From: a virus
Length of the DNA: 44,483 bases
Reading direction: 5' to 3' (one strand)
Virus record (IMG/VR): IMGVR_UViG_3300034110_000469
Span: 1-44,483 of that record
Below the pieces are notes generated by a model. The model saw only the letters and a program-made list of their open reading frames with translations. It did not search any database and was not told where the DNA came from. Made by a program: the position numbers and the translations under genes. Positions 30,449 to 44,483 of this stretch are shown piece by piece (position 1 is the stretch's first letter; every line of letters starts with the position of its first letter).

Positions 30449-32044
30449 ATGAGCTATATCACTCTAATAACAAACGCGGGGCTTGCGAAGATCACCGCCG
30501 CAATTGCTGGCGGTACTCAGATCACGCTAAGCCAGATCGCTGTCGGCGACGGGAACGGCAACCCGACAACCCCAGGGCAGACGCAAACGGCGCTGGTTAA
30601 CGAGCGTTACCGCGCCAGTGCCAACCAAGTGGCGATCAACAGCGAAGGCAAGCTGGTGGCGGAACTTATCATTCCGCAGAGCATCGGCGGTTTTACCGTG
30701 CGCGAAATCGCACTGTTTGACAGCACCGGCACGCTGTTTGCTGTGGGATCAACACCAGCGATCCAGAAACCGACTGTGGCAGAAAACGCTGCGGCCGAAC
30801 TGGTGATCCGCCTGATTGTTGCGATCAGCAATGCAGCAGTGATCCAACTAACCGCGTCGAGTTCGATCGTGGCGACACGCGACTGGGTAGAATCAAACTT
30901 TGCACTGGACGCGCTGTTTCCTGGTGGGACCACGAACCAGATCCTGCGCAAAAAATCTAACCTTGATGGCGATACAGAGTGGGCGAACCCGACAAACGTT
31001 AACGTCACAGTGAACACAATCGAGGAAACGCAGACGCTGGCAAATGCCCAAGTATTGGTTACGCTGGCGACTGCAACGACTACGGGCGCGGCTGTTTACA
31101 TCGATGGGATCCGGCTACCCCGTGCGCGGTATACCGTAAACAGCGCGACTCAGATCACACTTACGCAGTCTTACCCTGCAGGTTCGCTGATCACTGTCGT
31201 GCAAAATGAGCCGTCGGCACAAATTCAAGCCGTGCCAGTTGGTCAAGTGGTTTTACTGGGATTGTCCGCGCACCCTGCGCAGCTGTTCGGCTATGGCACT
31301 TGGCTGCAGGTCGGTAAGGGCCGCGCGCTGTTCGGTCTGGATGATGCTGACGCAGATTTTAACACGTTAGGGAAGACCGGCGGCCAAAAGCTGCACGCGC
31401 ACAGCGGTCTTACAGAGGTGGCAGGTAGCCACAACCACGGCGCAGCAGTCGCGGCAGCTGGCAGCCACAACCACGGCGCAGTCACAGCGGAAGGCGGCGA
31501 CCACAACCACGGCGCAACAACCGGCAACGCAGGCGCACACACCCACGGCAGCGTCACAGGTAGCGCAGGCGCCCACAGCCATGGCGGAACGTCTGGCGGT
31601 ACAGCGCTTACACCAGACCAGATCCCAAGCCACGATCACACGTACCGCGATCGGTATTACGCTGAGAACGGCGGAAGTTTGATTTCTGCGACATACAAAG
31701 AGGCAATGCCAAACAGCTACAATGCGGGACTTGGCTCGTCTGATACTGATTTCGACAACAATCAGTTTATGTATATCGACAAGACCACAGGCGCGACCGG
31801 CGGCGGACAGGCGCACAGCCACACGATCCAGACCGAAGCGGCCCACAGTCACACAGTCACCGCAGAACCGGCGCACGCGCACACGATCACAGGTTCAGGC
31901 ACGCACACGCACGCCGTTTCTGCCGATGGTACGCACACGCACGCCGTTTCAGCAGACGGCACGCACAGCCACGTTCTGACCACTGCGCAGACTACCAGTT
32001 TGCCGCCGTATTTCACCGTCGCCATGTGGCAGCGCACGGCATAA
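30449..32044 (+). CDS. H: Tail fibre with tail-collar N-terminus and HxH arrays
   Basis: 531 residues. The N-terminus SYITLITNAGLAKITAAIAGG ... ITLSQIAVGDGNGNPTTPGQ ... GFTVREIALFD is the P2 gpH/DUF3751 baseplate-binding domain. A middle domain (about 185-260) and a collar-like turn (GTWLQVGKGRALFGLDD) follow. Then come 13 His-x-His motifs in two arrays around an ALTPDQIPSHDHTYRDRYY segment. In T4 gp37 such motifs bind iron in a thin needle at the receptor-binding tip. It is the main adhesin candidate. Confidence 0.82.
   Translation: MSYITLITNAGLAKITAAIAGGTQITLSQIAVGDGNGNPTTPGQTQTALVNERYRASANQVAINSEGKLVAELIIPQSIGGFTVREIALFDSTGTLFAVGSTPAIQKPTVAENAAAELVIRLIVAISNAAVIQLTASSSIVATRDWVESNFALDALFPGGTTNQILRKKSNLDGDTEWANPTNVNVTVNTIEETQTLANAQVLVTLATATTTGAAVYIDGIRLPRARYTVNSATQITLTQSYPAGSLITVVQNEPSAQIQAVPVGQVVLLGLSAHPAQLFGYGTWLQVGKGRALFGLDDADADFNTLGKTGGQKLHAHSGLTEVAGSHNHGAAVAAAGSHNHGAVTAEGGDHNHGATTGNAGAHTHGSVTGSAGAHSHGGTSGGTALTPDQIPSHDHTYRDRYYAENGGSLISATYKEAMPNSYNAGLGSSDTDFDNNQFMYIDKTTGATGGGQAHSHTIQTEAAHSHTVTAEPAHAHTITGSGTHTHAVSADGTHTHAVSADGTHSHVLTTAQTTSLPPYFTVAMWQRTA
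31394..31582 (+). repeat. HxH array 1, 12-residue period
   Basis: Six His-x-His motifs (HAH, HNH, HNH, HNH, HTH, HSH) at exactly 36-base intervals, mostly of the form G-S/A-H-x-H-G. Confidence 0.85.
31814..31972 (+). repeat. HxH array 2, 10-residue period
   Basis: Six His-x-His motifs (HSH, HSH, HAH, HTH, HTH, HSH) at exactly 30-base intervals, with the unit HTHAVSADGT duplicated at the DNA level. Confidence 0.85.
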
Positions 32045-40583: not shown

Positions 40584-41027
40584 ATGGCTGCAAAATCCGA
40601 CTTTTTAGAAAATAAAATCATTGACTGGCTGTTTCGCGGCCAGTCTTACACGCCACCAGCAACGCTGCATTTCGCACTGTTGACCGTCAACACTGACGAC
40701 GATGGATCGCCACTTACCGAAGTTTCAGGCGGCAGTTATGCGCGCGTAGCCGTTACGCCGTCGCTGGCAAATTTCGCCGGCACACAGGGCGCAGGCACTA
40801 CCGTGACCAGCACCGGCAACACCGGCACCACTTCGAACAACGCAGCGATCACGTTCCCAGCACCGTCAGCAAACTGGGGCAGCGTCGTGGGCATGGCGAT
40901 TTATGACGCGGCAACCGGTGGCAACATGCTGATTTATACACCGCTGACAGTACCGAAAACCGTTAACAACGGCGACGCTGCGCCGGTTTTCGCAGCTGGT
41001 GCGTTCACTTACCAAGACGACAACTAA
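40584..41027 (+). CDS. Structural/fibre-associated protein
   Basis: 147 residues. LENKIIDWLFRGQSYTPPATLHFALLTVNTDDDGSPLTEVSGGSYARVAVTPS is a pattern of small phage structural proteins with a beta-sandwich fold, often located with fibre genes. GSVVGMAIYDAATGGNMLIYTPLTVPKTVNNGDAAPVFAAGAF continues the fold. It opens the second fibre cassette. Exact place in the virion is unknown. Confidence 0.6.
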   Translation: MAAKSDFLENKIIDWLFRGQSYTPPATLHFALLTVNTDDDGSPLTEVSGGSYARVAVTPSLANFAGTQGAGTTVTSTGNTGTTSNNAAITFPAPSANWGSVVGMAIYDAATGGNMLIYTPLTVPKTVNNGDAAPVFAAGAFTYQDDN

Positions 41028-41264
41028 TTGAAGCGCAGTAAAGCCTGGCGAACGCTGATCCTGATCGATCAGTTGTTCGCGGTTTGGATCTTCAACGCGC
41101 ACGAAGATCAGACGATCAGCGGTCACGTTGGCTATAAAGCGCTGATGTTTAGCGAACGCAAATACCTAGCGCTGGAAAAATTCATAAACTGGATTTTTTC
41201 GCCGTGGGAAAAGGATCATTGTTTTAAGGCAATTGAGTGGGATCGAGTGAATGAGCGCAAATAA
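41028..41264 (+). CDS. Small hypothetical protein (TTG start)
   Basis: 78 residues, TTG directly after the preceding stop. ILIDQLFAVWIFNAHEDQTISGHVGYKA resembles short phage proteins with a D/E-TISG motif found near tail-fibre genes. An aromatic C-terminal half (FINWIFSPWEKDHCFKAIEW) follows. It overlaps the next gene by 14 bases. Role unknown. Confidence 0.5.
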   Translation: MKRSKAWRTLILIDQLFAVWIFNAHEDQTISGHVGYKALMFSERKYLALEKFINWIFSPWEKDHCFKAIEWDRVNERK

Positions 41265-42120
41265 CATTGCAGAAACTAGCACCAGCACCGGAACCGGCAA
41301 TATAACGCTGGCCGGCGCATGGTCGCAGGCTGGCACGTACAACATTCACAACAACACGTTTCATTCGTTCTTCGGTGCAAACCACGTTTTTGATTATGAG
41401 ATCCGCGATCTATTGGGCAATCGTGAAAAAGGCGAAGGCTATCTGAGCAACGCCACCACGCTGGTGCGTCTGAATGTTTTTACAAATTCACTTGGCACAA
41501 CAGCAAAAATAAACTTTCCGGCTGGCGAAAAGATCGTTTTTGTTCCGACTGACGCGCGCGCTTTTGGTTCGCGCATGATGAACAAAGTAAATTATAGCCT
41601 GGCGCCAAATTTCATCGGCGTGCGCGGCGAAATAACAATGGTCCCAAATCGGCTATATGTTGCACCGCACCTAGTTGCTGCGCCGTGCAAACTTTCAACG
41701 ATCGCGCACACTATAACCCAGGGCGCTGTCGGTTCGCTGATGCGTGTCGGGATCTACAATCTGACGAAACAGTCAGACACTGGGCAAAACTATGATTCAA
41801 CTTTTCCATTGCTGATTGATTTCGGCACTGTCGATACGGCAACGGCGGCGATCAAGGCGATTTCCTGCGACATTAATCTGGCGCAAGGCGTTTACGGGAT
41901 CGCGGTTATCAGCAACGGAGCGCCGCGAATTATGTCTGGCAGCACTAACCTGATCGATCTTGGCATTCCTGCGAACACTTATCAAAGCAACCCCGTTTCC
42001 CATTGGTATAATGATGGCGCGTCGCAGTTCACAGCGCTGCCGGCTAACACGTTCGGCGCAATGTCTGCGATCATGAATACTGGCGCACCTGTTGCAATGT
42101 TTAAGGGCGGGATCTTATGA
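41251..42120 (+). CDS. Putative fibre/adhesin protein
   Basis: 289 residues. The N-terminus (ETSTSTGTGNITLAGAW) is a recurrent virion-attachment motif of phage fibres. The rest is beta-rich, with a middle domain (KIVFVPTDARAFGSRMMNKVNYSLAPN) and a C-terminal receptor-type region (TFPLLIDFGTVDTATAAIKAISCDINLAQGVYGIAVISNGAP). It overlaps the next gene by 4 bases. No enzymatic depolymerase motif is visible. Confidence 0.5.
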   Translation: MSANNIAETSTSTGTGNITLAGAWSQAGTYNIHNNTFHSFFGANHVFDYEIRDLLGNREKGEGYLSNATTLVRLNVFTNSLGTTAKINFPAGEKIVFVPTDARAFGSRMMNKVNYSLAPNFIGVRGEITMVPNRLYVAPHLVAAPCKLSTIAHTITQGAVGSLMRVGIYNLTKQSDTGQNYDSTFPLLIDFGTVDTATAAIKAISCDINLAQGVYGIAVISNGAPRIMSGSTNLIDLGIPANTYQSNPVSHWYNDGASQFTALPANTFGAMSAIMNTGAPVAMFKGGIL

Positions 42121-42608
42121 TTAATTTCAAAAATCTGGGCTTTGGCCTGACAAAATATCTGGCCAAAAATGGCGTGCTGCTGGAAGAACTAGACGGCGTT
42201 TTCGTTTCTAACTTGCCGGACGAAATCACGAACAGCCTGATCGAGAGTTACAACCCTTGGCCAACCGAAAAGGCGGCCAAAATGGCAGAGATTAATGCCT
42301 GGTTCGACGCAGCTGTGGGCCAACTAACTGCAGGCACCACGCAGTCAGAGCGCGACAGCTGGGCCGTGCAGGTGAATGAAGCCTATGGGATACGGCCTGT
42401 TTCGATGCTGGCAGCCATGGCCAACGCGCGCGGCATTGATCTGGGAACACTGATCGATAAAGTAAAACAGAAATCTGAACTGTTCGCGTCATACTATGGC
42501 GCGATCCAGGGCAAACGCGACGCACTGGAAGATCTGGTGAAATCATTCCCAGACGCTGGCCAGTTTGAGCGGCTGCCAGAGCTTTGGGCGGTTTCGTGTA
42601 CGGATTAG
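42117..42608 (+). CDS. Hypothetical helical protein, possible fibre assembly factor
   Basis: 163 residues. NGVLLEELDGVFVSNLPDEITNSLIESYNPWPTEKAAKMAEINAWFDAAVGQLTAGTTQSERDSWAVQVNEA resembles fibre-assembly chaperones of the DUF4376 kind in layout: a short beta start and long helices. It lies between two adhesin-type genes, which fits a chaperone. Identification is tentative. Confidence 0.45.
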   Translation: MINFKNLGFGLTKYLAKNGVLLEELDGVFVSNLPDEITNSLIESYNPWPTEKAAKMAEINAWFDAAVGQLTAGTTQSERDSWAVQVNEAYGIRPVSMLAAMANARGIDLGTLIDKVKQKSELFASYYGAIQGKRDALEDLVKSFPDAGQFERLPELWAVSCTD

Positions 42609-43654
42609 GGCCATACGGGCTTTACCCTTACGGCGTCGCGCCACAGCAGCAAACCAGCGGCGGTTCTAATACGCAGCTGGCGGCCAACGCTGCCGGCGTT
42701 TCAACCGTCACCGGTTCGCTGACCACAGCGATCAGAATGGTGGCTGCGGCCGCCGCTGTTTCTGCCTGCACGGCCACGCTATCGTCTGGCCCTGCACAGT
42801 TCCAGGCTGCTGCTGTTTCACAATCAACCGCAGCGGCACAGCTGACCACGTCGATCCGACTGGCAGCCAATACCGCGGCACAATCGACCGCGGCCGCAGC
42901 ACTGACCACAGGGATCCGACTTGCTGCGGCTGCCACCAGCAAATCGACGGCAACGGCTGCACTGGCTGCAGACGGTTCACAACTGGCGGCAAACGCCACC
43001 AGCCAGAGCACCAGCACCGCTGCACTGACCGCGCAGATCCGTATGGCGGCAAACGCTGCTGGACAATCTGCTGCAGTGGCGAACGTGACCACACAGATCC
43101 GCATGGTCGCGTCAGCTGTTGGCAGAGCGTCTGCAACGGCAAACCTGGCAACGTCGATCCGACTAAGTGCCAACGCCGCTGCAGTTTCGACTGCGTCGGC
43201 AGAATTTGCGACCGGCGGCGTTCAGTTTTCTGCCGCTGCGCAGTCAGTCGCCACAGTTGCCGGTCAGCTAACGACGCAGATCAAGCTGCAGGCCGTTGCC
43301 GCTGGCGTATCAACTTCGACGGCCACGCTGTCGGGGATCGCTGCGCAGCTGTCGGCAAACGCCCAGGCTGTTGCGTCAGCCAGCGCAGATCTGACCAAGC
43401 CAACGAACCTGCAGGCGAATGCCGCTGGTTATTCGTCGGCAAGCGCTGATCTGGTAACGGCGATCCGATTGTCAGCCACAGCGATCGCAGCAAGTTCTGC
43501 CAGCGCAATACTGACCGGCACCGATTCAGGTTATCTGCCGAACGCCGATCGCCTGGTCGCGGTTTGGCCAGACGTTCGCCTGGTGGTGATCAGAGTTGAA
43601 AACAGGATCCTGGCTGTCGATAGCGAGCAGCGCATAATTTCAAAGAGGGTATGA
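42584..43654 (+). CDS. Protein of fourteen 20-residue Ala/Ser/Thr repeats
   Basis: 356 residues from the TTG at 42584; a GTG at 42596 is equally possible. The N-terminal GLGPYGLYPYG motif is seen in phage structural proteins. Residues about 25-315 are fourteen units of 20-22 residues with consensus LAANAAGxSTATAxLTTxIR. A non-repeated C-terminus follows (YLPNADRLVAVWPDVRLVVIRVENRILAVDSEQRIISKRV). The regular Leu/Ile spacing suggests a solenoid or fibrous stalk. No family recognised for the repeat. Confidence 0.6.
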   Translation: MGGFVYGLGPYGLYPYGVAPQQQTSGGSNTQLAANAAGVSTVTGSLTTAIRMVAAAAAVSACTATLSSGPAQFQAAAVSQSTAAAQLTTSIRLAANTAAQSTAAAALTTGIRLAAAATSKSTATAALAADGSQLAANATSQSTSTAALTAQIRMAANAAGQSAAVANVTTQIRMVASAVGRASATANLATSIRLSANAAAVSTASAEFATGGVQFSAAAQSVATVAGQLTTQIKLQAVAAGVSTSTATLSGIAAQLSANAQAVASASADLTKPTNLQANAAGYSSASADLVTAIRLSATAIAASSASAILTGTDSGYLPNADRLVAVWPDVRLVVIRVENRILAVDSEQRIISKRV

Positions 43655-43938
43655 TGGAAAAATTCGAATTTTTGCACGCGCCAGGCGCGGATCTTGATTA
43701 TGGTTTTAATTGGCGCACAAATGGCTATCTGGAATCAGGCGAGGCAGTGACGATCAGCACCTGGGCAATTTCGCCAGCTGGAACGTTGACCAGGGAACAG
43801 ATCATCAATGCGGAAATCAGCAGCGTTTTCGTAGCTGGTTTACGGCTGAACACCGACTACCAGCTGACGAACACGATCACGACTAGCGAAGGAAGGACGG
43901 ACAGCCGATCGATCCAGCTGTCCTGTGTCAAACGCTAA
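43651..43938 (+). CDS. Fibre-tail adaptor-like structural protein
   Basis: 95 residues. FLHAPGADLDYGFNWRTNGYLESGEAVTISTWAIS resembles small phage proteins annotated as fibre-tail adaptors (LDY-x-F-x-W ... YL-x-x-GE). The rest is a beta-sandwich (SVFVAGLRLNTDYQLTNTITTSEGRTDSRSIQL). It ends convergently with ssb, the two stop codons overlapping by 2 bases. It closes the late region. Confidence 0.55.
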   Translation: MMEKFEFLHAPGADLDYGFNWRTNGYLESGEAVTISTWAISPAGTLTREQIINAEISSVFVAGLRLNTDYQLTNTITTSEGRTDSRSIQLSCVKR

Positions 43939-44483
43939 AATGGGATATCGTCATCGAAATCGATCGACGGTTCAGCTGGGCCGCGGTTCTGTTGGAACTG
44001 CTGCTGCGGCTGCGGCTGCTGTTGGTTGTAGTTGTATGGCTGCTGAACGGCACCCTGGTGGTTATTCGGTGCCGCTGAACCGTTCGCGTGGCGTCCGACC
44101 TGCGGCTGCTGGTTGTATGGCTGCTGTTGTTGCTGCTGCGCTGGGCGCTGCTGCTGTGGTTGTTGCGCATAGCCTTGCTGCGGCTGTTGCTGCTGTGGGC
44201 GTGTCTGCGTCTGCTGTTGCTGGCCAGGCTGCTGCATAGCTGGGACCGGCGGCGAGTATGCGACACCCAGCTGCGCGTCCAGGATTTCGATCGACAACGC
44301 CAGGCCGTTGGTGCCCTGGAACTGACGGATCCGCTGTTTGGTGCCGGTGATTTCAATCACTGACCCTTCGACCAGGACCGACTGATAAAACTGAACCTGT
44401 GCCGGCGCCTTGGCAAATAGCACCGCTTCGTAGTTTGTCCACTGATCTGTCTTAGTTTCGCGATCGAAATACTTCACACCGAC
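43935..44483 (-). CDS. ssb: Single-stranded DNA-binding protein, main part
   Basis: Continuation of the gene that starts at 208. The OB fold (KYFDRETKTDQWTNYEAVLFA, VEGSVIEITGTKQRIRQFQG, ALSIEILDAQLG) is followed by a linker of about 110 residues that is more than 40% Gln, encoded by CAG-rich DNA. It ends with the acidic DDDIPF tip that recruits partner proteins. Whole protein 209 residues. The linker is long and unusually Gln-rich for a phage SSB. Confidence 0.92.
   Translation of the reverse strand, partial: VGVKYFDRETKTDQWTNYEAVLFAKAPAQVQFYQSVLVEGSVIEITGTKQRIRQFQGTNGLALSIEILDAQLGVAYSPPVPAMQQPGQQQQTQTRPQQQQPQQGYAQQPQQQRPAQQQQQQPYNQQPQVGRHANGSAAPNNHQGAVQQPYNYNQQQPQPQQQFQQNRGPAEPSIDFDDDIPF
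44357..44483. repeat. Terminal direct repeat, right copy
   Basis: Identical to 1-127; overlap of a circular contig. Confidence 0.95.

What the first reader, a model, noticed from the sequence alone, without database searches (positions are those of the whole stretch)
42584..43654. Fourteen-fold 20-residue repeat protein of unknown family
The consensus LAANAAGxSTATAxLTTxIR repeats 14 times with fixed Leu and Ile/Val positions, and the middle of the protein is almost wholly Ala, Ser, Thr and Leu. An N-terminal GLGPYGLYPYG motif and a distinct C-terminal head frame the repeats. It may be a solenoid stalk or a cell-surface binding rod. I do not recognise this repeat.
Basis: seen in the sequence. 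Interest (0 to 1): 0.7.

Follow-up and report, generated by a model that had tools for sequence, protein, structure and literature searches.

The report
Repeat rope of phage collar fibre
A phage protein built of fourteen 20-residue repeats is most likely the 'rope' that strings bead proteins into a fibre hanging from the virus's collar, and very different ropes with the same repeat spacing sit in the same gene neighbourhood in many other phages.

Summary
In detail: 14 head-to-tail units of 20/21 residues (residues 32-316), far beyond chance. Two corrections: the start is probably GTG 42596, and the C-terminal 'head' is a second repeat, arginine every ninth residue (R323, 332, 341, 350). Pfam, PHROGs, NCBIfam, the PDB and a phage tblastn gave no hit. 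The neighbours identify it. The next gene is Pfam Gp77, the fiber-tail adaptor of podophage GP4; an upstream gene is Gp80, the bead of GP4 'fiber I' (PDB 8jou). In many unrelated phages a protein with ~20-residue repeats and, in most, the same 9-residue arginine tail lies beside a gp77-like gene, often with a gp80-like bead, and in three contigs it is fused to gp77. The repeat sequences differ (12 clusters by BLASTP), yet nearly all have a period of 19.75-23.25 residues. Best reading: the shaft ('rope') of a bead-chain collar fibre, C-terminus at the collar, N-terminus distal. The cassette is accessory: relatives lack it. That one unit holds one bead is inference. AlphaFold (pLDDT 58.5) predicts two strands per unit but does not settle solenoid versus threaded rope. 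It is a new, unrecognised variant of a known appendage.

The parts
   Evidence: ORF; start matched to the homologue in L003
42596..42676 (+). N-terminal segment MYGLGPYGLYPYG..., expected to be the distal end
   Evidence: conserved in L003; the motif also occurs in unrelated phage proteins; distal placement is inference from the fused relatives
42677..43531 (+). array of 14 units of 20/21 residues (nine of 20, five of 21)
   Evidence: unit table; autocorrelation against shuffles
43532..43651 (+). C-terminal arginine tail, R323-R332-R341-R350 at exactly 9-residue spacing; expected collar-proximal end
   Evidence: same kind of tail in most relatives; in L016 and L026 the tail runs straight into gp77 in one ORF
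43651..43938 (+). gp77-like collar (fiber-tail) adaptor, overlapping the rope stop codon
   Evidence: PF23148 E=6.8e-17; homologous domain of L026 matches 8jou_B, TM 0.83 by target length
40584..41027 (+). gp80-like bead of the fibre
   Evidence: PF23140 E=2.2e-41; 8jou_a E=1.8e-12
41028..41264 (+). small conserved gene in the cassette (78 aa), role unknown
   Evidence: homologue at L003 2574-2810
41251..42120 (+). 289-aa protein in the cassette, possibly a tip or adhesin component (guess)
   Evidence: weak PHROG matches to tail proteins, E 1.7e-6 and 9e-5; homologue L003 2797-3672
42117..42608 (+). 163-aa protein in the cassette, role unknown
   Evidence: phrog_2618 (unknown function) E=5.5e-17; 81% identical homologue in L003

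Best explanation
The protein is the shaft ('rope') of a bead-chain fibre attached to the collar of a contractile-tailed temperate phage, the same kind of appendage as fiber I of Ralstonia podophage GP4. The gp77-like protein encoded directly downstream forms the collar ring; the arginine tail of the rope docks there; the 14 units run outward and carry copies of the gp80-like bead; the short N-terminus is the distal end. Shown: the repeats, the tail, the two neighbour identities, the recurrence of the module, natural fusions to gp77, the shared repeat period. Inferred: that the protein is the rope, that the tail binds gp77, that each unit seats about one bead dimer so that unit number sets fibre length, and the direction of the fibre.
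For: Neighbours: Gp77 directly downstream and Gp80 upstream, the two proteins named for PDB 8jou 'Fiber I and fiber-tail-adaptor of phage GP4'. 8jou holds 10 gp80 and 3 gp77 chains, which fits the recalled account (JMB 2023 abstract, from memory; not in the library) of five gp80 dimers linked by a rope protein on a 15-fold adaptor. Synteny: the bead - repeat protein - gp77 order recurs in BcepIL02, Itty13, POI1126, Atu_ph08 and PBC5; in BcepMigl with one gene interposed; and as gp77 - bead - repeat protein in mycobacteriophages. L028 and L019, whose repeats and tails resemble the window's, also carry both a gp80-like bead and gp77. Repeat protein and gp77 lie in a single ORF in L016 and L026 (PF23148 at the C-terminus) and L048. 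Most of the repeat proteins end in arginines nine residues apart. 24 of 27 have a best period of 19.75-22.75 residues although BLASTP splits the set into 12 clusters; no genuine non-rope ORF of about 147 controls has a period of 19.5-23.5 at z>3. Virions: the JC1 homologues of bead (gp53) and gp77 (gp55) were found by mass spectrometry (PMC9144972); BcepIL02 bead, repeat protein and gp77 were all deposited as 'virion-associated'.
Against: No solved rope chain could be compared: BcepMigl's and three other rope-like proteins match nothing in the PDB, so the rope identity rests on position and architecture. The JC1 repeat protein (gp54) is not in that paper's virion list, though about five copies per virion would be easy to miss. 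Several gp77 loci show no PF23140 bead in the stretch held, only small genes of no or weak similarity to it. AlphaFold gives weak support to a self-standing two-strand repeat fold. L030 and L031 have a gp77-like gene and no rope was recognised. Rope candidates were partly picked by eye.
Confidence: 0.7

Rival explanations
1. The repeats fold by themselves into a two-strand-per-coil beta-solenoid stalk; the beads attach elsewhere or form another fibre.
For: AlphaFold2 puts two strands in nearly every unit, with pLDDT about 60-73 over the array. The LSH1 authors describe a weak beta-helix model for the C-terminal part of their gp34 (PMC13243795).
Against: Overall pLDDT 58.5, pTM 0.53, four sequences; no PDB fold match at E<0.5; the LSH1 authors call such models possible hallucinations. 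In the L026 fusion the corresponding segment is modelled without structure at pLDDT 22-42. It does not by itself explain why unrelated repeats keep a ~20-residue period beside the same partner genes.
Confidence: 0.2
2. It is an adhesin or receptor-binding fibre in its own right.
For: Some relatives carry lectin-like or beta-helix domains before the repeats (L011 Laminin_G_3, below cutoff; L016 Beta_helix).
Against: The window protein has no such domain, only about 27 residues before the repeats; its units are small uncharged residues; the phage has a separate P2-type tail fibre gene at 30449-32044.
Confidence: 0.05
3. A non-virion assembly factor or ruler for fibre building.
For: The JC1 repeat protein was not in the virion list.
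Against: BcepIL02 repeat protein deposited as virion-associated; natural fusions to gp77, whose homologue is in the GP4 structure.
Confidence: 0.04
4. Low-complexity sequence without function.
For: Composition is half Ala, Ser and Thr.
Against: Repeat signal beyond all 2000 shuffles; unit pattern, tail and gene position kept in L003 while sequence diverges and unit number changes.
Confidence: 0.01

Closest known systems
Fiber I of Ralstonia podophage GP4 (PDB 8jou: gp80 beads, gp77 fiber-tail adaptor; rope protein)
   Same: Window encodes homologues of gp80 (PF23140, 8jou_a) and gp77 (PF23148) around the repeat protein; the inferred architecture is the same.
   Different: The window phage has a contractile tail; no solved rope chain was found to compare with; the window repeat has no detectable similarity to the rope-like proteins of Burkholderia podophages except period and tail.
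Neck fibres of Anabaena myophage A-1(L) (gp82-gp81-gp80)
   Same: Five bead-chain fibres about 100 nm long on a 15-fold neck ring of a contractile phage (PMC10966104).
   Different: There the beads are trimers modelled as joined head to tail without a rope, and the ring is gp5; an analogue, not shown to be homologous.
Alishewanella phage LSH1 gp34-36 'extra structural module'
   Same: Bead-like gp35 (HHpred hit to 8JOU_g), Ig-fold gp36, and gp34 with a lyase-like N-terminal domain and poorly modelled C-terminal part; present in only about half of relatives (PMC13243795).
   Different: Authors could not assign gp34 or gp36; sequence of LSH1 gp34 not examined here, so the parallel is a proposal.
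PHROG_19041 (BcepIL02 gp56, BcepMigl gp28)
   Same: Same gene position, ~20-residue period, arginine tail.
   Different: Unrelated repeat sequence (GAGxADMxLxxxGNGTRR); annotated only as 'virion structural protein'.

Membership tests
GP4 fiber I-type appendage | gp77-type fiber-tail adaptor encoded in the module | tested here: met
   PF23148 E=6.8e-17 for 43651-43938
GP4 fiber I-type appendage | gp80-type bead encoded in the module | tested here: met
   PF23140 E=2.2e-41; 8jou_a E=1.8e-12
GP4 fiber I-type appendage | rope protein homologous to the GP4 rope | tested here: inconclusive
   GP4 genome not found in the collection under the accession tried; no PDB chain matches rope-like relatives; only position, period and tail agree
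GP4 fiber I-type appendage | beads strung on the rope, five fibres on a 15-fold ring | not testable with these tools
   needs cryo-EM of the virion
Rope group proposed here (repeat + tail + gp77 neighbour) | repeat period near 20 residues | tested here: met
   period 20.25, z=17.7
Rope group proposed here (repeat + tail + gp77 neighbour) | C-terminal arginines every 9 residues | tested here: met
   R323, R332, R341, R350
Beta-solenoid stalk proteins | stacked coils in a confident model | tested here: inconclusive
   strands in each unit but pLDDT 58.5, pTM 0.53, no fold match
A-1(L) neck fibre gp81/gp82 | trimeric globular beads joined head to tail, no rope | not tested
   A-1(L) sequences were not compared; architecture taken from PMC10966104

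The most novel reading that the evidence does not exclude
Phage collar fibres are built on a general ruler: rope proteins of unrelated sequence share a ~20-residue unit because each unit seats one bead dimer, the number of units fixes the fibre length, and a 9-residue arginine repeat locks the rope to the gp77 collar. Ropes can change sequence and length freely as long as period and tail are kept.
Probability: 0.4. Interest if true: 0.75.

Novelty: new variant of a known kind. Interest (0 to 1): 0.58.

Why it matters
It gives an unannotated repeat protein, and a large set of 'hypothetical', 'minor tail' and 'head' proteins, a specific place in the virion, and it offers an account of the unassigned gene module reported for phage LSH1 in 2026. 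If period and unit number do set bead spacing and fibre length, appendage length could be read from sequence and tested by counting beads in micrographs.

Tried and rejected
Direct homology searches with the whole protein (Pfam, PHROGs, NCBIfam, PDB, phage tblastn, viral contigs) found nothing; low-complexity filtering is a likely cause in the BLAST-based ones. The GLGPYG motif led to unrelated proteins. The genome-contig scan with gp77 gave two loci in which no rope was recognised. A loose arginine-tail pattern separated upstream genes from others only weakly (17/71 against 34/299, p=0.011); counting three arginines in register sharpens it, but with chance hits in antisense and off-module frames, so the tail supports rather than proves. 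AlphaFold of the L026 fusion modelled gp77 well but not the rope or tail. Rejected: recent slippage repeats; a catalytic or toxin role (no such domain found).

Full report
What is there. The ORF at 42584-43654 is real and holds 14 contiguous units of 20 or 21 residues. The pattern is [LMF]xAxAxxxS[TS]AxAxLTTxIR; alanine 3 is invariant. Autocorrelation peaks at lags 20, 41 and 61 and exceeds all 2000 shuffles of the same composition. Units share 41% of residues and 48.5% of bases on average, so the array is old. The probable start is GTG 42596, from alignment with the homologue in contig L003. After the units come 40 residues with arginines at 323, 332, 341 and 350, a second repeat of period 9.

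No direct family. Pfam, PHROGs, NCBIfam, PDB and tblastn against phages gave nothing for the protein.

The neighbourhood. The next gene (43651-43938) is Pfam Gp77, 'Podophage GP4 fiber-tail adaptor protein' (6.8e-17), and 40584-41027 is Gp80, 'Podophage GP4 fiber I protein' (2.2e-41; PDB 8jou_a 1.8e-12). PDB 8jou is titled 'Fiber I and fiber-tail-adaptor of phage GP4' and holds ten gp80 and three gp77 chains. From memory of the abstract of the GP4 paper (J Mol Biol 2023, 435:168258, not in the library): five fibres, each of five gp80 dimers linked by an elongated rope protein, sit on a 15-fold adaptor. A 2026 paper describes 8JOU_g as a dimer forming a fibril that connects an adhesin to the collar (PMC13243795). 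The window phage itself has terminase, portal, sheath, tape measure and baseplate genes of a contractile phage, an integrase and a P2-type tail fibre.

The close relative. L003 has the cassette with neighbours 78-81% identical, while the repeat protein is much less conserved, has 16 regular units instead of 14, and differs by whole units; the first unit is 75% identical.

The wider family. With gp77 as bait, 20 viral contigs and two bacterial contigs were found, and phage records were added. Next to gp77 there is usually a protein with ~20-residue repeats, in most cases ending in arginines nine residues apart. In Burkholderia, Pseudomonas, Ochrobactrum and rhizobial phages the usual order is bead, repeat protein, gp77, with a pectin-lyase-like gene interposed in BcepMigl; in mycobacteriophages it is gp77, bead, repeat protein. 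In L016 and L026 and L048 repeat protein and gp77 are one ORF, with the tail or its remnant next to gp77, so the C-terminus of the rope is expected at the collar. L028 and L019, with repeats like the window's, carry a gp80-like bead too.

The shared period. For 27 candidate ropes the best period is 19.75-22.75 residues in 24; the exceptions are L037 and L026 (weak signal, where simple autocorrelation gives about 20) and L042 (18.25). BLASTP at 1e-3 splits them, with GodonK gp96 (period 23.25) added, into 12 clusters. Of 150 control ORFs, three fell in 19.5-23.5 at z>3: two are antisense frames of ropes in L028 and L039, the third is GodonK gp96 itself, in a gp77 locus. Candidates were chosen by position and partly by eye, so the comparison is not blind.

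How it probably works. An extended chain of 20-22 residues spans about 6.6-7.3 nm (general knowledge), close to the bead spacing of the A-1(L) neck fibre (~100 nm for 16 beads, PMC10966104), although that fibre is built differently. In L011 and L012 each 22-residue unit splits into two 11-residue halves, which would suit a dimeric bead. BcepMigl's rope has room for about seven units, nearer to GP4's five dimers than to ten monomers. These are consistency arguments, not proof. Under this model the window fibre would carry about 14 beads.

Solenoid or rope. AlphaFold2 puts two strands in nearly every unit with pLDDT 60-73 in the array, 58.5 overall, pTM 0.53; no PDB fold matches and only vague hits to uncharacterised phage models. 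The gp77 part of the L026 fusion folds well (pLDDT mostly 88-96) and matches 8jou_B (TM 0.83 by target length), while the rope part does not fold. The question stays open.

Virion evidence. In JC1, mass spectrometry of CsCl-purified virions found gp53 (bead) and gp55 (gp77-like) but the list does not include gp54, the repeat protein (PMC9144972). In BcepIL02 all three are deposited as virion-associated.

Accessory cassette. In relatives with a similar hub and integrase (L046, L049, L054, L055) the minus-strand block that includes SSB follows the integrase closely and no bead or gp77-like gene was detected; L048 has a fused rope-gp77. LSH1's module is likewise present in only half of its relatives (PMC13243795).

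Judgement.

Noticed in passing
window 40584-41027; BcepMigl gp29, BcepIL02 gp55, POI1126 gp15: PHROG_240 is labelled 'head protein' (DC1 homologue even 'major capsid protein'), but the family is the GP4 fiber I bead (PF23140, 8jou_a); the label is probably wrong.
   Followed up: partly
L016 1590-5279, L026 3957-5240, L048 14326-14928: Rope-like repeats and gp77 occur in one ORF in three contigs.
   Followed up: partly
L035 5715-8003, L043 5808-7394, L044 5720-7306, L033 5292-6482: Mycobacteriophage 'minor tail proteins' carry the arginine tail with four to six matches; they look like ropes placed downstream of gp77.
   Followed up: partly
L042 (Rhodococcus phage REQ1) 4992-5264: A gp77-like gene is not annotated in the record; the stretch lies at the end of a gene annotated as DNA polymerase/primase.
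   Followed up: no
window 31427-31590 and 31898-31967: Tandem DNA repeats rich in His/Gly codons inside the tail fibre gene 30449-32044.
   Followed up: no
window 43935-44477 (-): SSB-like protein with a long Gln-rich stretch before the DDDIPF end; its stop codon overlaps the gp77 stop codon region.
   Followed up: no
L034 5611-6783 (Gordonia phage GodonK gp96): A 23-residue repeat protein downstream of gp77 with an arginine-rich N-terminus and a probably globular C-terminal part, possibly a rope of reversed polarity.
   Followed up: no
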